This document shows positions 5,036 to 23,355 of a stretch of 45,354 nt of DNA, in pieces. The stretch is from Cellvibrio mixtus subsp. mixtus J3-8 (GTDB taxonomy: Bacteria > Pseudomonadota > Gammaproteobacteria > Pseudomonadales > Cellvibrionaceae). Location: NCBI RefSeq assembly GCF_000766945.1, contig NZ_KN266209.1, forward strand, positions 217,848 to 263,201, in the 5' to 3' direction. Positions within the stretch are counted from its first letter, which is position 1. Every line of letters begins with the position of its first letter. The position numbers and the translations under genes are program-made. Under the pieces are notes generated by a model, which saw only the letters and a program-made list of their open reading frames with translations, had not been told where the DNA came from and searched no databases.

Positions 5036-6268
5036 TCAGGCCGGCCAGCGTTTGAAGATCAGCGAGGTATTGATGCCACCGAAGGCAAAATTGTTACTCA
5101 TGATATAGGTGCAATCCAGTAACCGCCCTTCGCCCATGATGTAGTCCAGATCGCCGCATTGCGGGTCGGGCGTCTGCAAATTGAGGGTGGGCGCAAACCA
5201 GCCTTCATTCATCATCTGGATGCTGGCCCAGGCTTCAATCGCACCGCAGGCACCGAGTGTATGGCCAATGTTGCCCTTCAGGGTGCTGATGGGCACGGTT
5301 TGTTTGCCGAATAACGTTTCGGTGGCGATGGATTCGGCGATATCACCGCGATCCGTCGCCGTGCCGTGGGCGTTGATATAGCCGATATCGGACGGCTGCA
5401 ACCCGGCATCATCAAGCGCCATTTGCATGGCAATATTCATGGTCGCCGGGTCCGGCTGGGTCACGTGGCCGCCGTCCGAATTGGTGCCGAAGCCAATCAG
5501 TTCGGCATAGATTTTTGCACCGCGCGCCAACGCATGTTCCAGTTCTTCCAGGATCAGGGTGCCGGCGCCTTCGCCAATCACCAAACCATCGCGGCCGCTA
5601 TCAAACGGGCTGGGTGTGATGCTAGGGGTATCGTTACGGGTGCTGGTGGCATAGAGGGTATCGAATACCGCCGCTTCCGACGGGCACAGCTCCTCGGCAC
5701 CGCCGGCTACCATCAGAGTTTGTTTGCCGTATTTGATGGCTTCGTAGGCATAACCGATGCCCTGGCTGCCCGAGGTACATGCGGACGAGGTAGTAATGAT
5801 GCGGCCTTTCAAACCAAAAAACACACCGACATTTACCGGCGCTGTGTGGCCCATCATACGGATATAAGTAGTAGCGGTAGCACCGCCGATATCGCGCTTG
5901 TCGAGCATCACTGCAAAGTCGCGGGTGGCGTCAGTGCTGCCGGTCGATGAACCGTAGGCAACACCCATGGCGCCACTTTGGATCAGCGGATCATCCAGCA
6001 AACCGGCATCGGTCAACGCAAGTTCGGTCGCGCGGGTGGAAAGCAGCGAGACACGGCCCATGGAGCGGATTTTCTTGCGCGGGTAATGAGCGGGAACGAC
6101 GAAATCTTCAATCGGCCCGGCCAGGTTGGTATTCAAATCTTTATAGGTGGCCCAGTCTTCCAGGCGGCGAATCGCACTGGTGCCGGCTTTGAGTTTCGCA
6201 GCAAAGTCCGGCCAGTTATCCCCCAGGGCGGTCACCACTCCCATGCCTGTTACTACGACACGCTTCAT
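5036..6268 (-). CDS. apeR: beta-ketoacyl-ACP synthase, ApeR-like
   Basis: A 410-residue KAS II-type condensing enzyme with an intact catalytic triad: Cys164 in SSACTSGSQG, His301 in NAHGTATDRGD and His336 in KGNIGHTLGA. In the aryl polyene pathway, type II ketosynthases elongate the arylated starter with malonyl-ACP units. It lies directly downstream of the ketoreductase gene, with stop and start sharing a base (TGATG). The ketoreductase-ketosynthase order matches apeQ-apeR in known clusters. It is the last gene of the minus-strand arm. A GC-rich imperfect hairpin follows the stop, without a T-tract. Confidence 0.85.
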   Translation of the reverse strand: MKRVVVTGMGVVTALGDNWPDFAAKLKAGTSAIRRLEDWATYKDLNTNLAGPIEDFVVPAHYPRKKIRSMGRVSLLSTRATELALTDAGLLDDPLIQSGAMGVAYGSSTGSTDATRDFAVMLDKRDIGGATATTYIRMMGHTAPVNVGVFFGLKGRIITTSSACTSGSQGIGYAYEAIKYGKQTLMVAGGAEELCPSEAAVFDTLYATSTRNDTPSITPSPFDSGRDGLVIGEGAGTLILEELEHALARGAKIYAELIGFGTNSDGGHVTQPDPATMNIAMQMALDDAGLQPSDIGYINAHGTATDRGDIAESIATETLFGKQTVPISTLKGNIGHTLGACGAIEAWASIQMMNEGWFAPTLNLQTPDPQCGDLDYIMGEGRLLDCTYIMSNNFAFGGINTSLIFKRWPA

Positions 6269-6999
6269 CAGAACATACCGCCATTGACTGAAATAACCTG
6301 GCGGGTGATATAGCCCGCCGGTGCAGATAATAAATAGCTTACCAATGACGCCACCTCGTCCGGCTCGCCAGCGCGGCGCATCGGGATAAGCTTGAGCGCT
6401 TCTTCTATCGGCGCTTCGTCAATCATATCGGTGTTGATCAACCCCGGCGCGACGCAATTGACGGTGATATCGCGCTTCGCCAACTCTATCGCCAGCGCTT
6501 TGGTTGCACCGATAATCCCGGCTTTGGCCGCACTGTAATTGACTTGCCCGCGATTGCCCATAATCCCGGAGACCGACGCCAGGGTAACAATGCGGCCCGG
6601 TTTGCGGCGGCGCACCATCGGCATAATGACTGGGTTGAGGACGTTGTAAAACGCATCCAGGTTGGTGTGGATCACCGCATCCCAATCTTCACCGCTCATC
6701 GCGGGAAAGGCGTTATCGCGCGCGATACCGGCATTGCATACCACACCGTAGTAGGCGCCGTTGGTTTCCATATCGGCTTCGAGTAATTGTTTGGCCTGCT
6801 CGCGTTCGGCTACATCAAATTGCAGGATGCTGGCTTTACCGCCGCCCTGCTGGATAAGTTGCTGCACTGCCTCGGCTTGTTCGCGCTGGCGGCGGCAGTG
6901 GATCACGACTTCATAGCCATCGCGCGCCAGGTGCAGGGCGATGGCGCGGCCAATACCGCGGCTGGAACCGGTGACTAACACACGTTTATCGTTATTCAT
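6268..6999 (-). CDS. apeQ: 3-ketoacyl-ACP reductase, ApeQ/FabG-like
   Basis: A 243-residue classical short-chain dehydrogenase. The NADPH-binding TGSSRGIG is at 10-17 and CNAG at 88-91. The catalytic set is Ser142, Tyr155 and Lys159. It should reduce the 3-keto group after each condensation. I chose the internal ATG at 6999 because GGGGA precedes it at a good distance, and it overlaps the upstream dehydratase by 8 bp. An ATG at 7020 would add seven residues. Context separates it from housekeeping FabG: it sits between a pathway-specific dehydratase and ketosynthase. Confidence 0.88.
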   Translation of the reverse strand: MNNDKRVLVTGSSRGIGRAIALHLARDGYEVVIHCRRQREQAEAVQQLIQQGGGKASILQFDVAEREQAKQLLEADMETNGAYYGVVCNAGIARDNAFPAMSGEDWDAVIHTNLDAFYNVLNPVIMPMVRRRKPGRIVTLASVSGIMGNRGQVNYSAAKAGIIGATKALAIELAKRDITVNCVAPGLINTDMIDEAPIEEALKLIPMRRAGEPDEVASLVSYLLSAPAGYITRQVISVNGGMF

Positions 7000-7489
7000 T
7001 GTTATTTTCCCCAGTTGCATTCATTTGCGTAAATTGTGTCATAAGGGCATCGACATCCCTGGGTTGGATCGCTTTTATTTCGGCGTGGGCGACCAGTTCA
7101 TCGCCCGCATAAATTTCACATTTAAAGAGTACAAGGTTGGTTTCATCGCGGAGCAACTCACTTACCTTAACGCGCAATTCCTGTTCGGTAGGAAAGAAGG
7201 GTATTTCCGCATGGTAACGGCGGGTGCCCAACAAAAATCCCAGCGATACCGGCCGGCCCGCTTGCAGCGATTCAATTCCCGCGAGCGCACCGATGGCTTG
7301 TGCCATATATTCAATGCCAACCCAGGATGGAACCCTGCCTTCATCATCCATCAGCAATTGCGAATCATGCGGATCGACTATCGCTTCCAGCTCACCTTTA
7401 CCCCAGCTCGCCACCGCTTTCAGCAGCAACATCGGCGGCCGGTGGAGGAGCAAATCCTGCACAGATTCAAATAGCGGTGGCTGACTCAT
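6992..7489 (-). CDS. apeP: hot-dog 3-hydroxyacyl-ACP dehydratase, ApeP-like
   Basis: A 165-residue hot-dog protein of the ApeP type. The catalytic histidine is in LLHRPPMLLL (His16). The second active-site segment is WVGIEYMAQAIGA near 56-68, where the glutamate takes the acid role. It would remove water from 3-hydroxyacyl-ACP and build the conjugated double bonds. The gene lies 8 bp after the lipoprotein gene and overlaps the ketoreductase start. A shorter relative is at 22930-23355, at the far end of the cluster. Confidence 0.85.
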   Translation of the reverse strand: MSQPPLFESVQDLLLHRPPMLLLKAVASWGKGELEAIVDPHDSQLLMDDEGRVPSWVGIEYMAQAIGALAGIESLQAGRPVSLGFLLGTRRYHAEIPFFPTEQELRVKVSELLRDETNLVLFKCEIYAGDELVAHAEIKAIQPRDVDALMTQFTQMNATGENNNE

Positions 7490-7497
7490 AGACTGAC

Positions 7498-8082
7498 TTA
7501 ATTCAATGGCTGGCTATGGATAAGCAAGCGCAACTCACGGGTGTTATAGCTGAGGCTGCCCTGCCAGGGATTCGCCGTTGTTGACTGGTACTCAATGGAG
7601 GCGCGCAATATACCAGAAAAGCGCGCCTCACGACCCCCGTTGCCATCAACGAAATCCCAGCGCGGATTCGCCGCCTGCAAATCGTTTAGCGGCCAATAAC
7701 CGAGCTGCCAGGCCTGGATTAGTTCGGGCAATAATTGATTGGCCGGATGGGATTGCAAACGCTCCACACGCACCTGGCCATCTACCGCTTCCGCCGTTGC
7801 CAGGCGTTGCCCCAGATTGTTCAACATAATCCAGCGCCAGTAATGTGGGCCGCGTTCAACCACCACTTCCAACGCATAATTATCCGCACCCTGTTGCACC
7901 TGCCACTGCTGTTGGGCGACACGGACTTGCGGATCGCTGCTCGCCACCAATAGCGTAAAATCCTTGCTCTTGAGGTTATTGCTATTGAACAGGCTGCATC
8001 CACCCAGCGCGAAAAAAATCACTAGCAACAAAGCGCGTGTTACTGCGCCTGGAATTATTGTCGATATTTTTTTTCCATTCAT
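7498..8082 (-). CDS. DUF3261-type outer membrane lipoprotein
   Basis: A 194-residue lipoprotein. A basic N-terminus and hydrophobic segment end in the lipobox ALGGC, with the lipidated Cys near residue 28. The family occurs in aryl polyene clusters next to the exporter (apeN position) and is presumed to help place the pigment in the outer membrane. The function is inferred from context. The ATG overlaps the exporter stop by 4 bp (ATGA). Longer in-frame starts were rejected because they would bury the signal peptide. Confidence 0.8.
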   Translation of the reverse strand: MNGKKISTIIPGAVTRALLLVIFFALGGCSLFNSNNLKSKDFTLLVASSDPQVRVAQQQWQVQQGADNYALEVVVERGPHYWRWIMLNNLGQRLATAEAVDGQVRVERLQSHPANQLLPELIQAWQLGYWPLNDLQAANPRWDFVDGNGGREARFSGILRASIEYQSTTANPWQGSLSYNTRELRLLIHSQPLN

Positions 8083-10490
8083 GTCTGTGTACTCGCCGTT
8101 GTTGCTGGACCCGGTGTGCGCAATTGCCCGGCAACCGGTGCATACAACCAATTAAAACAACAGCCCAAAAATAACGTGATGCCAAATGCGCTCACCATCG
8201 GCGTTGAACTCAGCGCTAGCAACCCGAACGATAAACTACTGGACACCGCCGATAAAAAAATCGCGCGCTGCGTAACCGGGTCTTGCGGGCCTTGCGTATA
8301 GGAAAAAATACCGTAGTCCATGCCCAAACCAAGAATCAGGTAGCAACCAAACAAGTGGAACAAATTAATCGCAACGCCGCTGAGCGTTAACAACGCCAAT
8401 GTAGTCACCGTTGCAATGAGCGGCACCAGGATTAATAACAGCGCGCGTTTGCGCCGGAAATAAATCCACAGCAACGGCAAAATAGCGACGTATGCCAGCA
8501 GCAATAATACCGCTGCCGAATTCATTAATTGATGCAACAACTGCGACATACCGGCAACGCGATCAATCCAGATAATCGAATGATTATTTGCCGCTGCCGC
8601 CAACGCCGTTACATCAACCACACCGCGCAAACCGATAATGCTTACCTGCTTGCCATTCAATTCACCCAACCACAATAAACCCTGGTCGGGACGCGCTACT
8701 TGCAACCACTCATCAACTAACAAATGCTGCGACTGTGCGGCAACAAATCCGCTTTGCGCTTGCGCAACGGCTTGGGCATCAAACCCGGCGGACTGCATAA
8801 ATTGATCAACCAATCCATTCGCGCTGTAAAGTTGTTGCGCCATTAACGCGTAATTCGCATGCTGCTGTTGCAGCGATGGAACGATTGCACTGGTGGCGAT
8901 ATAACCGCTAAACGCGCCTGCATTCACTAATGCATCCAAATGCTCGCGGCGGAAGCGTTCTTCCAATTGCAATAATTCTTCTGCGCTTTCGGCGCGCAAC
9001 AAAAAATATTGATTCGGGGAAACCCCCTGCAAGGCACTGTGCAAACGCTGCTCGGATGCCATTAATTGTGCGGAAGGTTTGTAGAGTGTGCGCACATCGC
9101 TGCTGCGGCTGGCCACTACACTACCGGCGATAATGACTAACGCTATTGCGCTGAAAATAAAATACTGCGGCAAACCGCGCATGCGCTGCCAGAAAAACCA
9201 GGCGGCTGCCGCGCAACGATCAATAATAGCAGACGGTACGGGTAACGGTTGGCGCACCAGGAGTGGATAAATCACCACCAGAAATAACCAGGCACCGCAC
9301 AAACCGATCACCGAAAATAATGCAATTTGTTGCAAACCCGGCAAGGGTGTCGGCAGCAAACTGCTATAGCCCAGTACCGAGGCAATCAAACTTAAACTCA
9401 ACGCTGGCAATAAAATTTCCAGCACACGTTTGCCGCGATCCTGTAAATCCGGCATGCGCAGTGACAAATCCTGGTACTTGCATAAATAGTGCAGCGAATA
9501 ATCCACGGCGACGCCAATCAAACTCGCGCCGAATACCAGCGTCATCAAATGGATTTTGCCAAATAAAAAATGATTGATAACCAGCGCAACCCCACAGCCA
9601 TATGCCACAGATACCAAACTTAGCAATAAAGGTTTGATGCGGCGAAATGCCAATAGAAATAACAGCAGCACGCCCAGACTGGAACCACCACCGATAATAC
9701 TCATTTCACGTTGCGCATTTGCCGAGGCTTCTGCTGCATGGAATACCGCACCGGACACCAATATCTGCGCGGTTTGCGTGTGCGGATTTATTGCCAGTTG
9801 CGTACGCAATTCCTGCAACCAGGAATTCATCTGCGCCTGCAATTCCAGATTGAATGATTCGCCTTGTAAATCGAGTGCAAATAAAATCAAAAACCCCTCA
9901 TTAGTAGTCACTACCAAACGGTCATTGATCAATTCGCCCTTGATTGCCGGTTGCAATTGCTGCGCATACACCGGGGCAAGGCTGAGTGGATCTTGTAACG
10001 GTGACAGCGCGCTACCCCCTACATTAAAACCAAATAGCGCCGCTTGTGCCCGGGCTAATAATTCTTGCGGATTATTATTGATGAGTTGTTGCTGTGCCGG
10101 TGTTAATAGCTGGTAACGATAGCGCTGCAATAATTCATGTTGCTGCGCGGCAAGTTCCATCTGCGCATTCATCGCACTGGCTTTCAGGTGCGGATTAGCC
10201 GTTATCGCCGCCGACAAAATATCCGCAGCGGCGCTTGCTGTTTCTTTGGCAGGTGCTTGCGCAGCAACGAGGATTTTATTACCGAACTGGCGGTACACCC
10301 GGTCATTAACACTATTGACCAATTGGTTGTGGCTGTCTTTTGGAAACAGGCTTTGCAAATCAGTTTCCAACACAAAGCCGTGCTTGATGAGCGGATAACA
10401 CAATGCCAGAGCGATGAGCGAGACCAGTACTAATAGCCAGCTGAATAATTGTTGCCAGCGCGCCAGCGGTATTTTTATTGTTGTTAGCAT
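8079..10490 (-). CDS. MMPL/RND-family exporter, ApeM-like
   Basis: An 803-residue inner-membrane protein with the RND/MMPL layout. TM1 is near 17-35, followed by a large periplasmic domain (about 40-250), a block of five to six helices (about 265-420), a second TM near 445-460, a second periplasmic domain and a final helix block. A GASLIGVAVDYSLH segment in the first half and GLGMDYGIF in the second correspond to the MMPL transmembrane motifs. It should move the polyene or its lipid conjugate out of the inner membrane. Its neighbours, a LolA-like carrier and a lipoprotein, suggest one trans-envelope route. Confidence 0.87.
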   Translation of the reverse strand: MLTTIKIPLARWQQLFSWLLVLVSLIALALCYPLIKHGFVLETDLQSLFPKDSHNQLVNSVNDRVYRQFGNKILVAAQAPAKETASAAADILSAAITANPHLKASAMNAQMELAAQQHELLQRYRYQLLTPAQQQLINNNPQELLARAQAALFGFNVGGSALSPLQDPLSLAPVYAQQLQPAIKGELINDRLVVTTNEGFLILFALDLQGESFNLELQAQMNSWLQELRTQLAINPHTQTAQILVSGAVFHAAEASANAQREMSIIGGGSSLGVLLLFLLAFRRIKPLLLSLVSVAYGCGVALVINHFLFGKIHLMTLVFGASLIGVAVDYSLHYLCKYQDLSLRMPDLQDRGKRVLEILLPALSLSLIASVLGYSSLLPTPLPGLQQIALFSVIGLCGAWLFLVVIYPLLVRQPLPVPSAIIDRCAAAAWFFWQRMRGLPQYFIFSAIALVIIAGSVVASRSSDVRTLYKPSAQLMASEQRLHSALQGVSPNQYFLLRAESAEELLQLEERFRREHLDALVNAGAFSGYIATSAIVPSLQQQHANYALMAQQLYSANGLVDQFMQSAGFDAQAVAQAQSGFVAAQSQHLLVDEWLQVARPDQGLLWLGELNGKQVSIIGLRGVVDVTALAAAANNHSIIWIDRVAGMSQLLHQLMNSAAVLLLLAYVAILPLLWIYFRRKRALLLILVPLIATVTTLALLTLSGVAINLFHLFGCYLILGLGMDYGIFSYTQGPQDPVTQRAIFLSAVSSSLSFGLLALSSTPMVSAFGITLFLGCCFNWLYAPVAGQLRTPGPATTASTQT

Positions 10491-10516: not shown

Positions 10517-11185
10517 TTATTGGTTAGCAGCAAAAGCCGCGCAGCTATCTTGTGGTTGCAAATAAAACCAATGGCATTGCGCGCGCGAAGGTGCAGCGCT
10601 TTCCGTTTGGTTAGTAAATTCAATCGTTGTTTCATCACCATTCGCGGCGGTCACAACCAGCTTTTGTAAAAATTGGTCGCCATTCATCACCGCGTTGCGC
10701 ATATTTTTTTTAATCAAATCCAGGCGCGGTGTTAGCGTGAGTTGCCACTGGTTTTTGTCGAATACCCAATCGGCAATAAAGCGTTGCTGGATTAATTCAA
10801 TATCGGCACTGAAAAAAGCCAGCAAGGTTTTATTGACTTCGCGCTGGATCAATCCCGATTGCTCCGCCGCTACGCTGCCCGTGCCATTTTGTTGCCAGTT
10901 AATAATATCGGTGCCGGTAATGGTCAACGCATTGAAAAACGGTTTGTCGGTGGCGATGTATAAACCATGGTCGCGCCAGAAAATAAATGTGCCTTGCGCT
11001 TTAAGTGCGTAAGCCAAACCCTGCAATTTTTTTTGCTGGTTAAATCCGCCGTGCACTACCTGGATTTCACTCAGGCGTTTTACCACCTGATCAATCTGTT
11101 GTTGCGTATCGGCAAATACCGATGGCGTAAGTAACGCAACAAAAAGCAGCGCCATTAAACGAAGCATTAACACAGATTTTTTCAT
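10517..11185 (-). CDS. LolA-like periplasmic outer membrane lipoprotein carrier
   Basis: A 222-residue protein with a clear signal peptide (MKKS then hydrophobic to about 25, cut near VFA). The rest resembles the LolA fold: repeated amphipathic beta strands and a conserved Ile-Arg-like region. In pigment clusters such proteins (apeL position) are thought to carry lipidated product across the periplasm. I chose the ATG at 11185, which gives a proper signal peptide. A start at 11263 would add 26 residues and bury it. The gap to the thioesterase gene is 4 bp, so the two are coupled. Confidence 0.78.
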   Translation of the reverse strand: MKKSVLMLRLMALLFVALLTPSVFADTQQQIDQVVKRLSEIQVVHGGFNQQKKLQGLAYALKAQGTFIFWRDHGLYIATDKPFFNALTITGTDIINWQQNGTGSVAAEQSGLIQREVNKTLLAFFSADIELIQQRFIADWVFDKNQWQLTLTPRLDLIKKNMRNAVMNGDQFLQKLVVTAANGDETTIEFTNQTESAAPSRAQCHWFYLQPQDSCAAFAANQ

Positions 11186-11189
11186 CAGA

Positions 11190-11612
11190 TTAACCTGGCA
11201 AAGGGCCCCATGTGGTGATGAGTTTTTGTTGCAAGATGGCCGGCGATTCAAAACACATTTCATTTTTTGCCATATCGATCGCCACCTGGATGGTGTAGGC
11301 CTTGGTCAAGCGCTCACCGGTTTCCAGATCGCTGATGACATAATCCAGTTTTAGCCGGTACTCCCACTCGCGCAGTGAACATTGCACTCGCACACGCTGG
11401 CCAAATTGCAGCGATTTTATATATTTGATGCGCATATCAATGATTGGCCAGGAATAACCGGATGCCTGCATAGCCTGATAACTGTAACCGCATGCCTCCA
11501 GAAATTCACAGCGGGCAACTTCCAGGTATTTTACATAGTGCCCGTGCCATACCACGTGCATGGAATCCACATCGTGAAAGGGCACCAGAATATCGGTTGT
11601 GGTTGAAAACAT
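11190..11612 (-). CDS. 4HBT hot-dog acyl-CoA thioesterase, ApeK-like
   Basis: A 140-residue single hot-dog thioesterase of the 4-hydroxybenzoyl-CoA type. The active-site segment HDVDSMHVVWHGHYVKYLEVAR is near residues 13-34, and an Asp there is the likely catalytic residue. It may release stalled intermediates or the finished chain, or proofread the ACPs. The start at 11612 is the first ATG; a TTG nine bases upstream is possible. Neither has a good ribosome binding site. Confidence 0.82.
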   Translation of the reverse strand: MFSTTTDILVPFHDVDSMHVVWHGHYVKYLEVARCEFLEACGYSYQAMQASGYSWPIIDMRIKYIKSLQFGQRVRVQCSLREWEYRLKLDYVISDLETGERLTKAYTIQVAIDMAKNEMCFESPAILQQKLITTWGPLPG

Positions 11613-11645: not shown

Positions 11646-12425
11646 CTACACGCGCTGCGTTTTGGAGCGGCGCGCGTTGGAAAAGTTGCGCCACACCAAC
11701 GCCGGAATACGCGGCAACATACCGAAAAACAAGCGCGTGTGCATCCAGCTGATGCGCACATTGTCTTTGATAATGTCGAAGTGCGAGGGAATGTCATCCT
11801 GGTACAAAATGCGGGTGGGAATATTTTCTACCGGCAGCCCCTGCCAATAGAGACGCACCAAAATATCGGTATCGAAATCCATGCGCGCGCCAATTTTGTT
11901 GCGCGCCAGCAATTGCATTGTGGGTGCTAACGGGTATAACCGGTAACCGCACATGGAATCTTTAATCGCGCGCGATAACGTGTTTATGCACACCCAGAAA
12001 TCCGTGAGTTTACGACCACTGCGACGCGACGGCGGCATGGCCGCATAGCTGCGCCAGCCACTGATGACCGCCAGCGGATTGCGTTGCGCGCTGGCGAGAA
12101 ATGCGGGCACATCATTTAAGTCGTGCTGTCCATCGGCATCCACTTGCAGCGCGTGGGTAAAACCCTTGCTATGTGCCAGTGTGAAACCGCGACAAACAGC
12201 AACACCTTTACCCGCGTTTTGCGCCAGGCGCAGTAATTCGACGCGCGGGTTTTCAGCGGCGATAACATCCAGCACCTGCGCGCAATGAGCCGCACTGCCG
12301 TCATCGACCAGAATACAGGGCAAACCAAAATCCAGCAGGCGTGCTACCAAACCTGCAATTTTATGGGGATGGTTGTAGACCGGAATCACCACACACGGCT
12401 TAAAAATGATTTCAGCGGAACTCAT
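11646..12425 (-). CDS. family 2 glycosyltransferase, ApeJ-like
   Basis: A 259-residue GT-A fold glycosyltransferase with PVYNHP at 15-20, the DDGS motif at 41-44 and the metal-binding DADG at 96-99. The sequence resembles dolichyl-phosphate mannose synthase-type enzymes without C-terminal membrane helices. In known clusters a glycosyltransferase at this place (apeJ) is sometimes fused to an acyltransferase; here it stands alone. It may add a sugar to the polyene or its lipid anchor. The ATG overlaps the upstream dehydratase stop by 4 bp. Confidence 0.83.
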   Translation of the reverse strand: MSSAEIIFKPCVVIPVYNHPHKIAGLVARLLDFGLPCILVDDGSAAHCAQVLDVIAAENPRVELLRLAQNAGKGVAVCRGFTLAHSKGFTHALQVDADGQHDLNDVPAFLASAQRNPLAVISGWRSYAAMPPSRRSGRKLTDFWVCINTLSRAIKDSMCGYRLYPLAPTMQLLARNKIGARMDFDTDILVRLYWQGLPVENIPTRILYQDDIPSHFDIIKDNVRISWMHTRLFFGMLPRIPALVWRNFSNARRSKTQRV

Positions 12426-12817: not shown

Positions 12818-12819
12818 GT

Positions 12820-16621: not shown

Positions 16622-16652
16622 ACGCGCTTATTTTTTAGGGATCACGCGCCAA

Positions 16653-17414
16653 ATGACCATTAACGAACAGAATCGTTTAGCTCCACACCCGGTATTGCCA
16701 GATTATTACGGCAAAGCTGAAGACAGACGCAGCCGTGTTGATGAGATGTTTGACTCATCTGCCGAGCACTACGACTGGATTACCGATGTGATGAGTTTTG
16801 GTTCTGGCCGTATGTATCGCCGCCAGGCGCTGTTGCGCGCTGGCGTGAAAGCGGGTGACAAGGTGCTGGACGTGGGTGCCGGTACCGGTGTGGTGTCCTT
16901 TTTGGCCCAGCAAATTGTCGGTGAAGAAGGTTTGGTAGTTGCACTTGATCCCAGCAAGGGCATGCTCGGCCAAGCCGTAAAACTGGGCGTTGAAAATGTG
17001 TCTATGGGGTTGGGTGAGGCGTTGCCGTTCCCCGATGATACCTTCGATTACCTGACCATGGGTTTTGCCCTGCGCCATGTGGCTGACCTCGGCGCGGCCT
17101 TTGCCGAATACCAGCGCGTACTGAAACCCGGCGGCAAGATTTTGCTACTGGAAATCACCCGCCCTGAAGGCAAGCTGGCGACCGCGTTCCTGAAGTTTTA
17201 CCTCAAAATTATCATCCCTAACCTCGCCAAAATTTTCCGTCGCAGCGCCGACAGTAAAGTGTTGATGCGCTACTACTGGGACACCATCGAACAATGTGTT
17301 CCACCGGCCACTATCGTTGATGCATTGAAAGCGACTGGCCTGGAGCAGAGCAAGCGCGCCGTAGTATTGAGCATTTTCAGCGAATACACGGGCATCAAAC
17401 CCAAACGTTCCTGA
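16653..17414 (+). CDS. UbiE/COQ5-family methyltransferase, pathway paralogue
   Basis: A 253-residue methyltransferase closely patterned on UbiE: VDEMFDSSAEHYD (29-41), MSFGSGRMYRRQ (47-58), SAM motif VLDVGAGTG (71-79), then a RVLKPGGKILLLE segment near 160. UbiE C-methylates the quinone ring. The cluster position suggests a paralogue that methylates the hydroxybenzoate-derived head group instead. Its place outside any ubi operon supports this, but true UbiE is not excluded. The ATG at 16653 gives the family length; starts further upstream lack family sequence. Confidence 0.82.
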   Translation: MTINEQNRLAPHPVLPDYYGKAEDRRSRVDEMFDSSAEHYDWITDVMSFGSGRMYRRQALLRAGVKAGDKVLDVGAGTGVVSFLAQQIVGEEGLVVALDPSKGMLGQAVKLGVENVSMGLGEALPFPDDTFDYLTMGFALRHVADLGAAFAEYQRVLKPGGKILLLEITRPEGKLATAFLKFYLKIIIPNLAKIFRRSADSKVLMRYYWDTIEQCVPPATIVDALKATGLEQSKRAVVLSIFSEYTGIKPKRS

Positions 17415-17468: not shown

Positions 17469-17747
17469 ATGAGTTTACAAACACAAGCAGAGCAGGAATT
17501 GGCCAAAGTACTGGTGGCAGCGCTGGACCTGGAAGACCTGGAGCCGGGCGAAATCAATCCGGAAGCGCCATTATTCGACCCCGGCCACAGCGAGAGTTTG
17601 GGGCTGGATTCAATCGATGCACTGGAAATTTCATTGGCCATCGCCAAGCACTATAAAGTGCAACTCAAAGCCGATGACGAAAACAATAAAGCGATTTTCC
17701 ACAGCCTGCGTTCGCTCAGCAATTACATAAATTCGCAACGTGCTTAA
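17469..17747 (+). CDS. acyl carrier protein (plus arm)
   Basis: A 92-residue acyl carrier protein with the phosphopantetheine site LGLDSIDALEIS (Ser48). It is the second ACP of the cluster, and corresponds to apeE/apeF-type carriers; which role each ACP has cannot be told here. It opens a tightly packed series of genes that overlap one another down to 23355. The downstream membrane protein gene begins 8 bp before its stop. Confidence 0.9.
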   Translation: MSLQTQAEQELAKVLVAALDLEDLEPGEINPEAPLFDPGHSESLGLDSIDALEISLAIAKHYKVQLKADDENNKAIFHSLRSLSNYINSQRA

Positions 17748-18348
17748 CCGCATACTTGCCATCGCACTGGTAGTGGCTTACCCGCTACTGGTGCATGTCT
17801 CCCTGGTGTTTGCCATACCGCAATTGATGTTTATCGCCCCGCTGGTATTCCTGACCGGGGCGTTCTGGTACGGATTGATCGCTCGCCACTTACTCGCCTG
17901 GACCTTATTCATAGCGTCTTGCGTGGCTATTTTGGTAGTGGAATACCTGGGCCTGACGCTCTATTTGCTGTACTTGCCACCGATCCTGTTGCCGTTGCTG
18001 TTTCTGGTTATTTTTGGCCGCACGTTGCTCGGCGGACGCGAGCCGTTAATCACTGCCATCGGTGAAGCCGCGCGCGGGCCTTTATCGGTTGCGATGCGCC
18101 GCTATACGCGCCGGCTTACGCTGCTGTGGTGCCTGGTATTCGCTACTATGGTGATCTGGTCAGCGATATTGCCCTGGCTGGAGCGACCGGAACTCTGGTC
18201 ATGGTTTACCAATGTGATTAATTACGGCGTTGTGGGCGCGCTATTTATAGGCGAATTTATACTGCGCAAAAAACTCTTCCCGACCCATAACCACCCCGAT
18301 TTTTTTGAGTACCTGCGCATTATCGCCCGCGCCAGGATTCACCGGTAA
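17740..18348 (+). CDS. COG4648-type membrane protein of aryl polyene clusters
   Basis: A 202-residue integral membrane protein with about five hydrophobic helices: near 4-20, 22-38, 45-62, 66-86 and 130-146, with a last one near 158-172. It resembles COG4648-type predicted membrane proteins found beside ACP and AMP-ligase genes in APE clusters (possibly the apeG position). Its function is unknown. The start is GTG at 17740, inside the end of the ACP gene. Confidence 0.7.
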   Translation: MLNRILAIALVVAYPLLVHVSLVFAIPQLMFIAPLVFLTGAFWYGLIARHLLAWTLFIASCVAILVVEYLGLTLYLLYLPPILLPLLFLVIFGRTLLGGREPLITAIGEAARGPLSVAMRRYTRRLTLLWCLVFATMVIWSAILPWLERPELWSWFTNVINYGVVGALFIGEFILRKKLFPTHNHPDFFEYLRIIARARIHR

Positions 18349-18359
18349 AGTGCGCCGCC

Positions 18360-19745
18360 ATGCAAGCGTCCAGCCCGTTAGTTGCCAGCCTTCCCGCCTT
18401 ATCGATTAATGCACCGGTTGCCTTGATCTACCCGTTTGTAGCGCAGCAAACCCTGGTTATCCATAAAGGCCGGGCAATCACCCAGGCGGAATTTTTGCGC
18501 GACCTTGAATGGATTGCCAGCCGCTTACCGGCGGGCGGTTTCGCGCTCAACCTGTGTGAAGATCGCTACTATTTTTTATTGGGTTTCTGCGCGCTGCTGG
18601 TGAAAGGGGCGATCAATTTATTGCCTCCCAACCGCCAGGCGCTGGCGTTAACCGAACTGGCGCAGGATTATCCCGATTGTTATTGCGTGTTCGATAAGGC
18701 GCAGGACTGCGATCTCCCCGCGATTAACCTTGTCGATTTGCTAAAGGAAAATCGCGCCCCTGAACCAGGCACCCCCACCCTGCCGATGATTCCCGCGCAG
18801 CAGGTTGCCGCTATCGCCTTTACCTCCGGTAGTACCGGCAAACCCAAAGCCAATGCCAAAAGCTGGGGCACACTCGCCGCGACAGCGCGCATGCTCGGCC
18901 AGCGCTTGAGCGCCGACCTGGTGATGCCGATCATTGTGGGAACCGTGCCGCCGCAGCATATGTACGGGTTGGAAACGACTTTATTTATGCCGCTGCAAGC
19001 CGGCACCATCATGCACAGCGATAAACCGTTTTATCCCGCTGATGTGCAACAACTGCTAACGCAACTGCCGGCACCCATCATCCTGGTAACGACGCCAATT
19101 CACTTGCGCGCACTGGTCAATGCCGGCTTACCCATGCCCGCCGTGGCCGGCATTATTTCTGCGACCGCGCCGCTGGATCAGGCCCTGGCGCAATCTGCCG
19201 AAGCCTGCTTCAGCACTTCACTGTGGGAAATTTATGGCTGCACCGAAGCGGGCAGCATGGCCACGCGCCGCTCCACCCAAACCGCAGAATGGCAATTGCT
19301 ACAAGATTTCCAGCTGACCCTGGACGACATAGGGGCTATCGCACGCGCGCCACACTTGCTGGAAGACGCCCCGATCCAGGACCAATTAACCTTACTCGAC
19401 ACCGAACGCTTTTTGTTGCAAGGGCGCAATGCCGACATGATTAATGTGGCCGGCAAACGCGCCTCATTGGCGAACCTGACTTTGCAGTTGCTGCGTGTTG
19501 ATGGCGTAAAAGACGGGGTGATTTTCTTGCCACCGCAATCCACTCAAGCCGAAGTTCGTCCGGTCGCGATGGTGGTGAGTGATCGCCCGGAAAAAGAAAT
19601 CCTCGCTGCGTTGGCCTTACGGATAGATGCTACCTTTTTACCGCGCCCGTTGCGCAAAGTCGCCAGCTTGCCGCGCAATGAAACCGGCAAGCTGACTGCC
19701 GCCGCCTTGCACCAGCTCTGGAGCCAGATTAATGACCAGCGCTAA
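18360..19745 (+). CDS. apeH: AMP-dependent acyl-ACP/CoA ligase, ApeH-like
   Basis: A 461-residue adenylate-forming enzyme. Core motifs are TSGSTGKPK (155-163, phosphate loop), YGCTE (292-296) and the C-terminal RNETGKLT with the catalytic lysine. It is shorter than most acyl-CoA ligases, as is usual for ApeH. ApeH-type ligases activate 4-hydroxybenzoate and load it on an ACP. The nearby chorismatase supplies a fitting substrate. The gene is followed with a 14-bp overlap by the next dehydratase. Confidence 0.87.
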   Translation: MQASSPLVASLPALSINAPVALIYPFVAQQTLVIHKGRAITQAEFLRDLEWIASRLPAGGFALNLCEDRYYFLLGFCALLVKGAINLLPPNRQALALTELAQDYPDCYCVFDKAQDCDLPAINLVDLLKENRAPEPGTPTLPMIPAQQVAAIAFTSGSTGKPKANAKSWGTLAATARMLGQRLSADLVMPIIVGTVPPQHMYGLETTLFMPLQAGTIMHSDKPFYPADVQQLLTQLPAPIILVTTPIHLRALVNAGLPMPAVAGIISATAPLDQALAQSAEACFSTSLWEIYGCTEAGSMATRRSTQTAEWQLLQDFQLTLDDIGAIARAPHLLEDAPIQDQLTLLDTERFLLQGRNADMINVAGKRASLANLTLQLLRVDGVKDGVIFLPPQSTQAEVRPVAMVVSDRPEKEILAALALRIDATFLPRPLRKVASLPRNETGKLTAAALHQLWSQINDQR

Positions 19746-20076
19746 TACGCCTAATGAATTGCATCTGCAGGTTCCACTCGAACATCGCAGCTTCCCCGAT
19801 CACTTTCCCGGCGCACCACTAGTGCCAGGCGCGCTGCTATTGAAATGGATTCTGGCGTTGCTCGCTGGCCAGCAACATCGGCACATCCGCTATATCAAGC
19901 AGGTTAAATTCCTGGCGCCAGTACAACCGGGGGATCAGGTGCGGCTGTGCCTGATTGCCGGCAAACAGAGCCATCAATTAGGTATTGATGCCTATGTCGA
20001 TGAAACCCTGGTGCTTAAAGGGCAATTTGAAAGTCATGCGGAAACGACTTCCGTCACTGGAAAATCCCATGACTGA
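19732..20076 (+). CDS. apeI: hot-dog dehydratase-like protein, ApeI-like (copy 2)
   Basis: A 114-residue single hot-dog protein. DHFPGAPLVPG (His24) matches the FabZ/ApeI active-site loop. It lies directly behind the AMP ligase gene, which is the apeH-apeI order of known clusters. It overlaps the ligase by 14 bp and the next acyltransferase by 8 bp. In the aryl polyene pathway ApeI and ApeP are both dehydratases and are not fully interchangeable. A related protein is at 12422-12817. Confidence 0.82.
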   Translation: MTSANTPNELHLQVPLEHRSFPDHFPGAPLVPGALLLKWILALLAGQQHRHIRYIKQVKFLAPVQPGDQVRLCLIAGKQSHQLGIDAYVDETLVLKGQFESHAETTSVTGKSHD

Positions 20077-20998
20077 ACCCACCGCCGCCAAGCAATGGCA
20101 AACGCAGCAGGAGCGCGGCACGCCGTTTTTGATGAACTTGTTGACCTGGGTCGCATTGCATTTGGGGCGACGGGTTATCTTTAGCTGGTTGTGGGTGATC
20201 GTATTTTATTATTTTCTGGTAGCGCGCAGCCCGCGTCGTGCCTCGCGCCATTTTTTGCGGCGCGCTCTGGAACGTGCGCCAACAGGATGGGAGATTTATC
20301 GCCACCTGCTAACCTTTGCGCAAGTGGCGATGGACCGGATCTATTTTTTGTCCGGACAGGAGCACAAGTTCGATGTGCATATCCACGGCAACGAGATATT
20401 CACCCATTATAAAAATCGCGGCTGTTTTTTAGTGACCGCCCATATCGGCAGCTTTGATGCCTTGCGCGTAATGGGGATGGGCAGACGCAGCGATGCACTG
20501 CCGATCCGCATCCTGCTCGATGTGGAGCATAACGCCAATATTATGCAATTGATCAACAAGCTGGACCCACAGCTCGCTGCCGGTGTCATAAACGCACGTA
20601 CACCCGCCCCGGAGCTGGCGTTGATCCTGAGCGAAGCCATTGAGCAGGGCCATTTGGTGGGCGTGATGGCGGATCGTTGCGCCCAGGGCGAACGCAGTGC
20701 CAGCCTGGAGTTCCTGGGGAGTCACGCCCAATTCCCTACCGGCGTCTGGCAAATGGCCAGCCTGCTTAAAGCGCCGGTGATTAGCTGTTTTGGGGTTTTT
20801 TCGGGTGCGAACCGCTATGACTTGCACTTTGAACTGATCAGCGAACAACTGGGCACCAGCCGCCAGGAGCGCGCACAAGCGATCAGCAATGGCATGGCCA
20901 AATACGCCAGCAGCTTGCAAGAACTGGTGCGCAAGCACCCTTACAACTGGTTTAACTTTTATGATTTTTGGCAAGATGATTCCGCTCCACATCACTAA
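20069..20998 (+). CDS. LpxL/HtrB-like lipid A-type acyltransferase
   Basis: A 309-residue membrane-bound acyltransferase of the LpxL/LpxM family. The HX4D motif is AHIGSFD (His125, Asp130) and an N-terminal hydrophobic helix lies near 36-52. It lacks a lipid A biosynthesis context and sits between pathway dehydratase and ketosynthase genes, so it probably transfers the polyene chain or a fatty acyl group to a lipid acceptor. The ATG at 20069 overlaps the dehydratase by 8 bp. A longer start at 19985 would overlap the whole end of that gene. Confidence 0.83.
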   Translation: MTEPTAAKQWQTQQERGTPFLMNLLTWVALHLGRRVIFSWLWVIVFYYFLVARSPRRASRHFLRRALERAPTGWEIYRHLLTFAQVAMDRIYFLSGQEHKFDVHIHGNEIFTHYKNRGCFLVTAHIGSFDALRVMGMGRRSDALPIRILLDVEHNANIMQLINKLDPQLAAGVINARTPAPELALILSEAIEQGHLVGVMADRCAQGERSASLEFLGSHAQFPTGVWQMASLLKAPVISCFGVFSGANRYDLHFELISEQLGTSRQERAQAISNGMAKYASSLQELVRKHPYNWFNFYDFWQDDSAPHH

Positions 20999-22145
20999 TT
21001 ACACCTACACCACCTGCCTGGGGGCAGGGCGTCAGGCGAATTGGGATGCGCTCCGTGCGGGTGTTTCAGGGCTCAAGCCGTGTGATTTTTTCCAGATTAC
21101 CGACCTCACCACCTGGATTGGTGAAGTTGCCGGGTTAGACCTCATACTGCCGCAGCATGTGCAGGATTTCGATTGCCGCAATAATCGCCTCGCCTGGCTC
21201 GCCTTGCAGCAAGATGATTTTTTCACTGCCGCGACCACCGCCGTCGCCCGCTACGGCGCCCCACGCGTGGGCGTGTTCATCGGCACCAGCACCTCCGGCA
21301 TCCATCAAACCGAACTCGCATATTTCGAAAACCATGGCTCGCTCCCGGAGTGGTATAACTACCGCACGACCCACAATGTGTCCTCCGTCGCTGCGTTCGT
21401 GCAACAAGCACTGGGCACCAGCGGGCCGATGATGGCGATTTCCACCGCTTGCTCCTCCAGCGCCAAGGTATTTGCCGCAGCGCAACGCGCGATTAACGCT
21501 GGCTTGTGCGATGCCGCGATTGTCGGCGGTGTCGATAGCTTGTGCCTGACCACACTCTACGGTTTCCATTCCCTGCAACTGGTATCACCAGACAAATGCA
21601 AGCCCTTTGATCGCCAGCGCAGCGGTATTTCTATCGGCGAAGCCGGTGGTTTTGCACTGCTGGAAAAAAGCGACAGCGCCGGTTTGTACTTGCTCGGCTA
21701 TGGCGAAAGTGGCGATGCCTATCACATGTCTTCACCCCATCCTGAAGGCGAAGGCGCGCAGCTCGCGATGGCAGCGGCATTGCACAAAGCGGGATTGGAG
21801 GCTGGCGCTATCGACTACATCAACCTGCACGGCACCGGCACCCAGGCCAATGACAATGCCGAAGCCAAAGCCGTACAAAAACTGTTTGGCTCCACCACAC
21901 CCGCCAGCTCTACCAAAGGCTGGACCGGTCACACCCTGGGTGCCGCTGGCATCGTGGAAGCCTGTATCGGGCTGGATGCGATAACCCACGATTACCTGCC
22001 ACAAAACCTGCATTTGCAGGAGCCGGACGAGGATATGTCCATCGCCCTGCTGAAAAATCCCCGGGCACAGCCGGTGACGCGAGTGCTTAGCAATTCATTT
22101 GGTTTTGGCGGCAGCAATTGCAGCCTGATTTTGGGGAGCCTCTGA
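20976..22145 (+). CDS. apeO: beta-ketoacyl-ACP synthase, ApeO-like
   Basis: A 389-residue KAS I/II-type ketosynthase with a complete triad: Cys159 in ISTACSSSAKV, His285 in NLHGTGTQ and His319 in TGHTLGAAG. The GTSTSGI stretch near 103-109 and the TKGWTGHT region are typical of ApeO. ApeO acts with the chain-length-factor-like ApeC to extend the polyene; the next gene supplies that partner, joined by TGATG. The ATG at 20976 lies inside the acyltransferase gene, giving a 23-bp overlap. Confidence 0.88.
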   Translation: MIPLHITNYTYTTCLGAGRQANWDALRAGVSGLKPCDFFQITDLTTWIGEVAGLDLILPQHVQDFDCRNNRLAWLALQQDDFFTAATTAVARYGAPRVGVFIGTSTSGIHQTELAYFENHGSLPEWYNYRTTHNVSSVAAFVQQALGTSGPMMAISTACSSSAKVFAAAQRAINAGLCDAAIVGGVDSLCLTTLYGFHSLQLVSPDKCKPFDRQRSGISIGEAGGFALLEKSDSAGLYLLGYGESGDAYHMSSPHPEGEGAQLAMAAALHKAGLEAGAIDYINLHGTGTQANDNAEAKAVQKLFGSTTPASSTKGWTGHTLGAAGIVEACIGLDAITHDYLPQNLHLQEPDEDMSIALLKNPRAQPVTRVLSNSFGFGGSNCSLILGSL

Positions 22146-22936
22146 TGCTGACCTGTTATCTCAATGCTATTGGCCTGGCAGCGCCCGGATTGCCCGACTG
22201 GCAGCGCAGCCGCGCCGTCCTGCAAGGTTCTGCGCCTTATGTGCCGGTAGCCCTGGCAAAATACAAACCGGAATTGCTGCCACCCAACGAGCGCCGCCGC
22301 GCCACCGAGTTGGTGCGCATGGCGTTCCGGGTCTGTGAAGATTTGATGGCTTCCAGCACGATTCCCATGGCGGACTGCGCCAGTGTATTTGCGTCTTCCG
22401 GCGGGGATTACCCGATCATCGACCAGATTTGTCGCTCGCTGTGCGAACCGGAACGGTTGGTATCGCCCACCCAGTTCCACAATTCGGTACACAATTCCGC
22501 CGCCGGTTACTGGAGTATCGCAACCGGCAGCCGCCAGCCATCGACCAGCCTCTCCGCCTATGACGACAGTTTTGTCGCCGGTTTGCTGGAAGCTATGTGT
22601 TTGTGCGAGCAGGAACAATTACCGACGCTACTCACTGTCTATGACATCCAGCCACCCTACCCACTGGGCGACAAACGCCATATCCCGGTGGAGTTCGGCG
22701 TAGCTTTACTGCTCACACCACAACCCGGAGCGCAAAACCTTGCGCGCTTGCAGCTACATCCAAACGCCCACGAAGACGCAAGCGCAGCGCAGCCGGCATT
22801 GGAGCAACTGCGCCTTGCCAATCCCGCTGCACGCAGCTTGCCCTTGCTGGAGTTAATCGCCCGGGGCAAGGCTGGCAAGGTGATATTTACCAGCGCCAGC
22901 CAGCCACCGGTGCAATTACAGGTAGAACCATGTTGA
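22145..22936 (+). CDS. apeC: ketosynthase-like chain length factor, ApeC-like
   Basis: A 263-residue protein of the short ketoacyl-synthase-like family (Ketoacyl-synt_2 type) that pairs with ApeO. It is far shorter than a true ketosynthase. The region that would hold the nucleophilic cysteine reads FHNSVHNSAAGYW (111-123), with no cysteine, so it is probably a non-catalytic partner. Its start shares a base with the apeO stop (TGATG), as expected for two subunits made in equal amounts. Confidence 0.85.
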   Translation: MLTCYLNAIGLAAPGLPDWQRSRAVLQGSAPYVPVALAKYKPELLPPNERRRATELVRMAFRVCEDLMASSTIPMADCASVFASSGGDYPIIDQICRSLCEPERLVSPTQFHNSVHNSAAGYWSIATGSRQPSTSLSAYDDSFVAGLLEAMCLCEQEQLPTLLTVYDIQPPYPLGDKRHIPVEFGVALLLTPQPGAQNLARLQLHPNAHEDASAAQPALEQLRLANPAARSLPLLELIARGKAGKVIFTSASQPPVQLQVEPC

Positions 22937-23355
22937 TGGATCGCGCCCGTATTGTCACGCTGATTCCCCATGGCGATTCCATGTGCATGCTCGATGAAAT
23001 CATCCGCTGGGATGAAACCCGCATCCATGGCCGCAGTCACAACCTCGCCGCCAGCACCAATCCCCTGTTCGAAGATGGCCAGCTTGATAGCGTGTTATTG
23101 ATTGAATACGGCGCTCAGGCAGCGGCAGTACATGCGGCACTTTTGCACTCCAAACTGGGAGAAAGCCGTCCGGCTTACATAGGGGCCGTTAAGGATGTTG
23201 AGTTATTCACAGCGATGGCAGACAATTCCACCGCTTTGGATTTGTACCTGGAATGTTTGCTAAGCAGCAGCCAGGGTGCAATTTATGAACTGGTGGCACA
23301 GCAAGCTGACAAATTGCTGTTGCGCGGACGCCTGATTTTAAGCCAGCCCGGCTAA
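22930..23355 (+). CDS. short ApeP-like hot-dog dehydratase
   Basis: A 141-residue hot-dog protein related to the protein at 6992-7489. The active-site histidine is in IPHGDSMCMLD (His14), and IEYGAQAAAVHAA near 56-68 supplies the second half of the site. It is 24 residues shorter than its relative. It overlaps the apeC stop by 7 bp and is the last gene of the plus-strand arm. It may be the main dehydratase partner of apeO/apeC, or be specific for another chain length. An ATG at 22936 is an alternative start. Confidence 0.8.
   Translation: MLMDRARIVTLIPHGDSMCMLDEIIRWDETRIHGRSHNLAASTNPLFEDGQLDSVLLIEYGAQAAAVHAALLHSKLGESRPAYIGAVKDVELFTAMADNSTALDLYLECLLSSSQGAIYELVAQQADKLLLRGRLILSQPG

What the first reader, a model, noticed from the sequence alone, without database searches (positions are those of the whole stretch)
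5036..23355. Aryl polyene cluster with a built-in chorismatase
The cluster has APE-type condensing, reducing and export genes. It also encodes an FkbO/Hyg5/XanB2-family chorismatase at 15436-16419, beside the ApeH-like ligase arm. Most E. coli-type APE clusters rely on other sources of hydroxybenzoate, while XanB2 feeds the xanthomonadin pathway. This cluster therefore combines APE-type core genes with a xanthomonadin-type starter supply, so the pigment head group may differ from known APEs.
Basis: partly seen in the sequence, partly recalled or inferred. Interest (0 to 1): 0.75.

Follow-up and report, generated by a model that had tools for sequence, protein, structure and literature searches.

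The report
Part-APE, part-xanthomonadin pigment gene cluster
A Cellvibrio-like bacterium carries a predicted yellow-pigment gene cluster whose two halves resemble two known pigment pathways, including an enzyme likely to make the pigment's own aromatic starting block; the parts are known, their combination is what is of interest.

Summary
The chorismatase is real: minus strand, 15436-16419 (PF21168, E 1.1e-32; best solved relatives are chorismatases). It is the first gene of the minus-strand arm. A chorismatase in an aryl polyene cluster is not new: XanB2, Lysobacter ORF5 and ArcB are published. What stands out is the whole cluster. The minus arm (5036-15454) scores closest to E. coli-type APE loci; most of the plus arm (17469-23355: carrier protein, ligase, acyltransferase, KS, CLF, dehydratase-like) scores closest to xanthomonadin-type loci. 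So the starter-loading and chain-building module, not only the starter supply, looks xanthomonadin-type. Trees support this in part: four of six clade tests reject the contrary placement, KS and ligase do not. The arrangement recurs: in 144 genomes of the family, all 25 with this CLF type carry a chorismatase, against 1 of 48 (unlinked) with the other CLF type. Predicted: chorismate to 3-hydroxybenzoate (perhaps also 4-), loaded, built into a polyene, methylated, anchored and exported by APE-type genes. The product is untested; residue 173 differs from the Hyg5 signature. Verdict: new variant of a known kind, moderate interest.

The parts
5036..6268 (-). ApeR-type ketosynthase (FabB/F-like)
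   Evidence: PF00109/PF02801; NF006587 730.1 bits over cut-off 470; best solved relative 4ewg, E 5.5e-168, which PMC8358021 calls an ApeR homologue; next 7f27, E 8.6e-157 (that it is A. baumannii ApeR is recalled); 65% to E. coli APE vs 33% to xanthomonadin-type loci
6268..7020 (-). ApeQ-type ketoreductase (FabG2)
   Evidence: TIGR01831 403.6 bits over cut-off 338.85; 63% E. coli APE vs 46% xanthomonadin type
6992..7489 (-). ApeP-type dehydratase
   Evidence: PF22817 ApeP-like, E 1.1e-14
7498..8151 (-). ApeN-like DUF3261 protein
   Evidence: PF11659, E 1.8e-22; no BLAST match in either reference set, so placed by family and position only
8079..10490 (-). ApeM-like MMPL-type exporter
   Evidence: PF03176; position as in E. 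coli APE
10517..11263 (-). ApeL-like LolA protein
   Evidence: PF03548
11190..11621 (-). ApeK-like thioesterase
   Evidence: PF13279; 48% E. coli APE, no match in the xanthomonadin-type loci held
11646..12425 (-). glycosyltransferase family 2, matches residues 5-257 of the 558-aa E. coli gene at the ApeJ position
   Evidence: PF00535; 56% E. coli APE vs 32% xanthomonadin type
12422..12817 (-). ApeI-type dehydratase
   Evidence: PF22818 ApeI-like, E 3e-17; PDB 3esi and 6qsr
12820..13119 (-). acyl carrier protein, APE type
   Evidence: PF00550; NF003757 123.2 bits over 65; 55% E. coli APE, no match in the xanthomonadin-type loci held
13267..14007 (-). SAM methyltransferase 1
   Evidence: PF08241; no match in E. 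coli APE, APE-type or xanthomonadin-type sets; assigned only in 3 close clusters
14077..14676 (+). small membrane-like protein, function unknown, inside the minus arm
   Evidence: no Pfam match; 61-68% identity in the closest clusters
14651..15454 (-). ApeD-like lysophospholipid acyltransferase
   Evidence: PF01553; next to the chorismatase in 20 of 20 related loci
15436..16419 (-). chorismatase (FkbO/Hyg5 family, with the residue pattern common among proteobacterial copies)
   Evidence: PF21168; solved relatives; residues E334, C327, G240 kept, Ala at 173; tree
16548..17414 (+). UbiE-like methyltransferase 2 (start codon uncertain)
   Evidence: PF01209, E 1.6e-36; 206 and 288 bits in beta and other gamma chorismatase loci, none in the xanthomonadin-type set, 45 bits in the APE-type set
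17469..17747 (+). acyl carrier protein, xanthomonadin type
   Evidence: PF00550; 58% xanthomonadin type vs 42% E. coli APE
17740..18348 (+). ApeG-position membrane protein
   Evidence: 76 bits xanthomonadin type vs 44 E. coli; no Pfam match
18360..19745 (+). hydroxybenzoate:ACP ligase (ApeH-like; the Xanthomonas name XanA2 is recalled)
   Evidence: PF00501; 42%/307 bits xanthomonadin type vs 27%/104 bits E. coli APE; tree
19732..20076 (+). small dehydratase-like protein
   Evidence: FabA-like 22.9 bits, just under its cut-off 23; 46 bits to each reference set, a tie; position as Lysobacter ORF8 (PMC3691225)
19985..20998 (+). LpxL-like acyltransferase, matches residues 234-550 of the E. coli gene at the ApeJ position
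   Evidence: PF03279; 39% xanthomonadin type vs 28% E. coli APE
20889..22145 (+). ketosynthase of the KS-CLF pair (ApeO-like)
   Evidence: NF006618 532.1 bits over 407; best solved relative 6qsp_A, the ApeO-ApeC of Xenorhabdus (PMC8358021); 55% xanthomonadin type vs 43% E. coli APE
22118..22936 (+). chain length factor (ApeC-like)
   Evidence: PF13723; PDB 7f28_A and 6qsp_B only; 120 bits xanthomonadin type vs 45 E. coli APE
22930..23355 (+). protein at the position of the Lysobacter ORF12 dehydratase; dehydratase by position only
   Evidence: 40%/101 bits xanthomonadin type, none in E. coli APE, 43 bits in the APE-type set; no Pfam match

Best explanation
The locus is a chimeric aryl polyene pathway. 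Its xanthomonadin-type half makes and loads the starter and builds the chain: the chorismatase splits chorismate to 3-hydroxybenzoate (perhaps with 4-hydroxybenzoate, as XanB2 and ArcB do); the plus-arm ligase activates it and loads it on the plus-arm ACP; the KS-CLF pair condenses it repeatedly with malonyl units, and the dehydratases complete the double bonds. Its APE-type half supplies the single ketoreductase (ApeQ), the helper ketosynthase ApeR, the ApeI/ApeP dehydratases, the second ACP, and the anchoring and export genes (ApeD, GT, ApeK, ApeL, ApeM, ApeN). One or both methyltransferases modify the ring. Expected product: a non-halogenated, probably methylated 3-hydroxyphenyl polyene on an APE-type lipid. 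Shown here: gene content, family membership, the closer kin of each arm, and co-occurrence. Inferred: every reaction, the ring position and the lipid.
For: Chorismatase family. Catalytic Glu334 and the Gly240/Cys327 pair are kept, where FkbO has Ala at both (role of Glu334 and the Gly/Gly/Cys signature from passages of PMC7170507). Split kinship: 10 minus-arm genes match at least one of the two reference sets besides the chorismatase, and 10 of 10 score higher with the APE-type set, also when E. coli alone is used; of 8 plus-arm genes from 17469 on, 7 score higher with the xanthomonadin-type set and 1 ties. The chorismatase matches the xanthomonadin-type set only; three genes match neither set. 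KR, GT, exporter, LolA, ligase and KS-CLF each occur once, so the arms complement each other. Clade tests: LpxL-like acyltransferase p 2.8e-5 and CLF p 0.028 reject joining the APE type; GT p 0.0073 and KR p 1e-4 reject joining the xanthomonadin type. Co-occurrence: 25 of 25 strong-CLF genomes carry a chorismatase, 24 of them on the same contig within about 15 kb by printed coordinates; 1 of 48 weak-CLF genomes does, unlinked. All 34 ligases of chorismatase-linked loci, the window's included, fall on one side of a branch (100*, length 1.65) and the 21 of APE-type loci on the other. Own genome has UbiC, so the pigment gene need not serve ubiquinone. Relatives: ArcB makes 3-HBA and ArcT activates it (PMC3949708, results part 1 and discussion).
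Against: The first plus-strand gene, the UbiE-like methyltransferase, does not follow the split: none in the xanthomonadin-type set, 45 bits in the APE-type set, but 206 and 288 bits in beta and other gamma chorismatase loci. Two of six clade tests do not reject the contrary: ligase p 0.28, KS p 0.065; all six groups were named after trees had been looked at, which the test's own note warns of. Trees are quick ones with long branches. Gly173, part of the Hyg5 signature, is Ala here, so the product cannot be read off. Outside the family all chorismatase-linked loci were found through the chorismatase, so the ligase split is partly by selection, and Ralstonia has a pig-like cluster without xanB2 (PMC9542644 passages). 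The co-occurrence genomes are kin, so the Fisher p (1e-18) overstates independence. Reference sets differ in size (28 APE-type loci, 6 xanthomonadin-type). No chemistry.
Confidence: 0.7

Rival explanations
1. Ordinary xanthomonadin/arcuflavin-type cluster: simply a divergent member, with the APE-like genes being old shared parts and no mosaic history.
For: The clusters share most functions; KS and ligase tests are not decisive; KR of seven beta loci sits in one unresolved set with APE-type KR; ApeR-type KS was assigned in 2 beta loci, ApeK-type TE in 2 other gamma loci and ApeD-type acyltransferase in 10 beta loci.
Against: ApeK, APE-type ACP and ApeR were assigned in none of the xanthomonadin-type or Burkholderia loci held; GT and KR tests reject grouping with the xanthomonadin-type set.
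Confidence: 0.16
2. The chorismatase makes mainly 4-hydroxybenzoate, so the pigment is an ordinary 4-hydroxyphenyl APE with its own starter source.
For: Position 173 differs from the 3-HBA-forming Hyg5 type; XanB2 and ArcB form both acids (PMC3949708); four subfamilies are described (PMC7170507 passages).
Against: UbiC already supplies 4-HBA in this genome (by family); the ligase lies with chorismatase-linked ligases, away from APE-type ligases; in Azoarcus the fluorinated 3-hydroxy analogue was incorporated and the 4-hydroxy one was not (PMC3949708).
Confidence: 0.13
3. The chorismatase mainly feeds ubiquinone and sits in the cluster by chance, as XanB2 also serves ubiquinone.
For: 12 of the 25 chorismatase-cluster genomes show no PF04345 UbiC.
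Against: Own genome has UbiC; 29 of the 34 genomes without PF04345 match the related lyase family PF01947, leaving 2 of the 25 (G034, G056) with neither; the order chorismatase-acyltransferase is kept in 20 of 20 loci.
Confidence: 0.04

Closest known systems
Xanthomonadin cluster (Xanthomonas pig; Lysobacter enzymogenes ORF1-17)
   Same: In-cluster chorismatase, ligase, ACP, KS-CLF, dehydratase-like and LpxL-like acyltransferase genes, compared through three xanthomonadin-type loci and the published gene list (PMC3691225, section 6 and passages).
   Different: Two divergent arms instead of that succession; KR, GT, exporter and LolA are closer to APE type; ApeR, ApeK, a second ACP and ApeD are added; no halogenase among the 23 cluster genes.
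E. coli APE cluster (CFT073, c1186 onward)
   Same: Minus arm runs R-Q-P-N-M-L-K-GT-I-ACP-D in the same order (letters partly from PMC8253772 passages, partly by position).
   Different: The KS-CLF pair, ligase, membrane protein, one ACP and the acyltransferase half of ApeJ lie on the other strand and score closer to xanthomonadin type; chorismatase added, not annotated in E. coli APE, which takes 4-HBA from UbiC (PMC8253772 passages).
Arcuflavin clusters (Azoarcus BH72 arcA-X)
   Same: XanB2-type chorismatase ArcB and ligase ArcT feed the polyene; a methionine-derived methyl on the pigment (PMC3949708).
   Different: Azoarcus genes lie in two unlinked loci with a halogenase gene, and the pigment is esterified to a dialkylresorcinol; resorcinol genes were not sought here.
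Ralstonia solanacearum pig-like and ape clusters
   Same: Both pathway types in one organism (PMC9542644 passages).
   Different: Two separate clusters and no xanB2 there; here one locus with one copy of most functions.

Membership tests
FkbO/Hyg5/XanB2 chorismatase family | Family domain and similarity to solved members | tested here: met
   PF21168 E 1.1e-32; 5ag3 3.1e-49 and FkbO 4bps 4e-41. That 5ag3/5a3k are Hyg5 is recalled (record title: putative pteridine-dependent dioxygenase); its Glu334 agrees with what PMC7170507 says of Hyg5
FkbO/Hyg5/XanB2 chorismatase family | Catalytic Glu (Hyg5 E334) | tested here: met
   Glu in the window protein and in 101 of 103 rows, 2 being gaps; role from PMC7170507
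CH-II (Hyg5) subfamily | Gly173, Gly240, Cys327 together (mapped from Nat-hyg5 G164/G231/C318 by a constant offset of nine) | tested here: not met
   Gly240 and Cys327 present, 173 is Ala; TIGR04444 under cut-off
CH-III (XanB2) subfamily | Groups with XanB2/ArcB | tested here: inconclusive
   Lies in a set of 89 of 98 rows with enzymes from Arenimonas, Azoarcus and Dechloromonas records, apart from Hyg5 and FkbO (support 89); no named XanB2 or ArcB sequence was at hand
CH-III (XanB2) subfamily | Makes 3-HBA and 4-HBA | not testable with these tools
   needs an enzyme assay
E. coli-type APE cluster | ApeR, ApeQ, ApeK, ApeI, ApeP, APE ACP, ApeD, ApeL-N | tested here: met
   ApeN by Pfam and position only
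E. coli-type APE cluster | APE-type ligase and KS-CLF | tested here: inconclusive
   present, but closer to xanthomonadin type in score; CLF test rejects APE grouping at p 0.028, KS 0.065 and ligase 0.28 do not
Xanthomonadin cluster | In-cluster chorismatase with ligase and KS-CLF | tested here: met
   by sequence only
Xanthomonadin cluster | KR and GT of the same type and the ORF5-ORF17 succession | tested here: not met
Xanthomonadin cluster | Halogenase (absent in Lysobacter too) | tested here: not met
   none among the 23 cluster genes

The most novel reading that the evidence does not exclude
A third, recurrent aryl polyene architecture: in Cellvibrionaceae the starter-and-elongation module of an APE cluster has been exchanged for the xanthomonadin module, with the chorismatase at the seam, giving a 3-hydroxyphenyl polyene carried on APE-type lipid and export machinery. 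The KS and chorismatase trees leave open that this happened more than once (two arrangements).
Probability: 0.5. Interest if true: 0.55.

Novelty: new variant of a known kind. Interest (0 to 1): 0.45.

Why it matters
If true, aryl polyene pathways are modular: the part that picks the ring and builds the chain can be exchanged while the part that anchors and exports the pigment stays. That is testable in one organism, and it suggests a genome rule (ligase and CLF type, usually with a chorismatase; Ralstonia is an exception for the chorismatase) for predicting the pigment's ring from sequence.

Tried and rejected
Chance ORF: rejected. FkbO-type (non-aromatic product): the window has Gly240/Cys327, FkbO has Ala at both. 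Replacement of UbiC as the reason for the gene: one search showed an excess of genomes without PF04345 among chorismatase bearers (14 of 29 against 20 of 115, p 0.001), which looked like support, but the related lyase family PF01947 matches in 29 of those 34; dropped. A topological test for every plus-arm gene: ligase and KS tests did not reject. Carriage on a plasmid: 11 plasmid records match; in the five whose flanks I viewed (14 kb on each side once, 3 kb four times) no APE-type gene is annotated. Promoter and terminator scan: 12 promoter-like sites against 16.7 expected, 32 terminator-like against 26.4; no information. Plus-arm ancestry is not uniform: UbiE-like gene as told under evidence against.

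Literature: 'chorismatase' + 'aryl polyene' 0 papers; 'aryl polyene' + 'XanB2' 2; 'aryl polyene' + 'Cellvibrio' 8; 'aryl polyene' + '3-hydroxybenzo' 7; 'aryl polyene' + 'chorismat' 9; hybrid/mosaic search 3. I saw PMC3949708 (outline, results part 1 of 2, discussion), PMC3691225 (section 6 and passages), and passages of PMC8253772, PMC7170507, PMC8358021, PMC9542644, PMC9966250, PMC11839114, PMC9203511, PMC5536142; other papers as listings only. The library holds openly licensed papers, so absence there is weak.

Rows dropped: in the chorismatase tree 5 short rows (L038, L039, L065, L102, L119) and duplicates; in the KS test L157 and L161 (a wrong paralogue on a length-10 branch) and in the KR test L208; in single-gene trees rows shorter than 60% of the median. 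Of the 67 class genomes with the domain, 30 gave loci and neighbourhoods of 20 of these 30 were fetched; 12 of the 20 have four or more APE-type neighbours. The profiles used there were trained partly on chorismatase loci.

Full report
What is there. The window lies in a 5.18 Mb genome. The nearest named relatives are Cellvibrio sp. OA-2007 and a Cellvibrio MAG, each 70% identical in the chorismatase, with all 23 cluster genes matched in both. Contigs of two genomes listed as same genus have the exact lengths of these two records (404,899 and 74,337 bases), so the window's genus is taken as Cellvibrio, family Cellvibrionaceae. The cluster has two divergent arms. The minus arm, read from the seam outward, is chorismatase, ApeD-like acyltransferase, methyltransferase, ACP, ApeI, GT, ApeK, ApeL, ApeM, ApeN, ApeP, ApeQ, ApeR; one small plus-strand gene of unknown function sits inside it. 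The plus arm is UbiE-like methyltransferase, ACP, membrane protein, ligase, dehydratase-like, LpxL-like acyltransferase, KS, CLF, and a last gene called dehydratase-like by position. The Ape letters follow E. coli CFT073 (PMC8253772 passages) and PMC8358021 passages, some by position only.

The chorismatase. It belongs to the family. In Hyg5 numbering it keeps Glu334, Gly240 and Cys327 but has Ala at 173. In the alignment of 103 rows, 89 have Ala there, 11 Gly, 2 Val, 1 a gap; the Gly rows are Hyg5, FkbO, the five plasmid copies (Streptomyces twice, Pseudonocardia, Caballeronia, Aureibacter), the genome's own second copy with two kin, and L127, which lies in an APE-type neighbourhood and so breaks the pattern. 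Ala is thus the rule for proteobacterial copies, APE-linked or not. PMC7170507 names Gly164/Gly231/Cys318 of Nat-hyg5 as the CH-II signature; the mapping to 173/240/327 is mine, by a constant offset of nine, not checked on a Nat-hyg5 sequence. That Ala marks the XanB2 type is inference. In the tree the window falls with its Cellvibrio kin, inside a set of 89 of 98 rows apart from Hyg5 and FkbO (support 89). One row in that set, Aureibacter, has Gly173 and a very long branch.

Two arms, two kin groups. These last were recognised by succession: L186 runs chorismatase, ACP, membrane, DH, acyltransferase, LolA, exporter, DH-like, KR, GT, CLF, KS, the succession of functions given for Lysobacter ORF5-ORF17 (PMC3691225); strands were not compared. 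All 10 comparable minus-arm genes score higher with the APE type; of 8 plus-arm genes from 17469 on, 7 score higher with the xanthomonadin type and one ties. Examples in bits, E. coli against xanthomonadin type: ApeR 568 and 148; GT 282 and 85; ligase 104 and 307; KS 253 and 382. Exception: the UbiE-like gene (16548) matches no xanthomonadin-type locus, has a weak 45 bits in the APE-type set, and 206 and 288 bits in beta and other gamma chorismatase loci. ApeN, methyltransferase 1 and the small membrane gene match neither set. ApeR, ApeK and the APE ACP were assigned in no xanthomonadin-type or Burkholderia locus held, but ApeR type in 2 beta and ApeK type in 2 other gamma loci. Clade tests support the split for CLF, LpxL-like acyltransferase, GT and KR, and are inconclusive for KS (0.065) and ligase (0.28); the groups were named after trees had been seen. 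The ligase tree still separates all 34 chorismatase-linked from 21 unlinked ligases by one long branch.

How general. In 144 genomes of the family, the window's CLF finds 73 genomes, in two groups with a gap in score (116 bits and up: 25; 59 and down: 48). The domain PF21168 is in 29 of 144. All 25 of the first group have it; of the 48, only G013, whose copy is of the second type. G010, G036 and G178 have the domain but no CLF match. By coordinates 24 of 25 have both on one contig; G040 has them on two. Of the 40 loci fetched, 20 of 20 chorismatase loci show chorismatase then acyltransferase, and 0 of 20 of the other kind have a chorismatase hit. These genomes are kin, so the numbers are not independent events. 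Farther off, 67 of 369 class genomes have the domain, and 12 of 20 neighbourhoods examined have four or more APE-type genes. Copies with no APE-type neighbour found exist too, for example in three Arenimonas loci and on Caballeronia plasmid pNK83.

Mechanism. Best reading: chorismate to 3-HBA by the chorismatase; loading by the plus-arm ligase; elongation by KS-CLF with the ApeQ reductase and dehydratases; ApeR as a helper, as in A. baumannii (PMC8358021 passages); methylation; anchoring and export by APE-type genes. All steps are inferred from relatives: ArcB and ArcT assays (PMC3949708), and about 90% pigment loss on deleting the Lysobacter chorismatase gene ORF5 (PMC3691225 passage; the outcome of 3-HBA feeding was cut off in what I saw). 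The E. coli pathway instead is predicted to take 4-HBA from UbiC (PMC8253772 passages). This genome has UbiC elsewhere.

Known or new. An in-cluster chorismatase is known. One locus that joins an APE-type arm with a xanthomonadin-type arm did not turn up in my literature searches, which cover openly licensed papers only and of which I opened few. A Cellvibrio aryl polyene cluster has been reported among tomato-root QTL contigs (PMC9203511 passages), and yellow pigment varies among Cellvibrio strains (PMC5536142 table passage); neither describes this architecture in the passages I saw. I file it as a new variant of a known kind.

Noticed in passing
L003:8561-9595 (-), genome G000:C1 about 290.6-291.6 kb: A second chorismatase of the same genome, with Gly173, beside an NRPS frame of at least 2113 aa, an AMP-ligase with carrier domain, a methyltransferase and a carbamoyltransferase; close copies in 2 other genomes (G010, G013) of the 144. 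Possibly a starter or cap for an unknown peptide product.
   Followed up: partly
family survey: 34 of 144 genomes lack a PF04345 (UbiC) match; 29 of these match PF01947 instead, suggesting divergence or exchange of the 4-HBA-forming lyase by lineage. In many UbiC-bearing genomes the PF01947 match is the UbiC locus itself, so the two profiles overlap.
   Followed up: partly
window 13267-14007 and 14077-14676: Methyltransferase 1 and the small opposite-strand membrane-like gene were both assigned only in the same 3 close clusters (L134, L137, L138), as if a recent insert in the minus arm.
   Followed up: no
L133, L139, L140, L142, L144, L145, L147, L151, L152: A second arrangement of chorismatase-bearing clusters in the same family, without a UbiE-like match; its KS groups with the xanthomonadin-type loci (support 97) rather than with the window's KS.
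   Followed up: partly
L103, L104, L110, L113, L119, L127: Chorismatase domains in open frames of 459-827 aa in several class genomes; whether fusions or merely long open frames was not decided.
   Followed up: no
window 24119-26140: Dynamin-like GTPase (PF00350) just downstream of the cluster, after a YbjQ-like small protein at 23407-23847.
   Followed up: no
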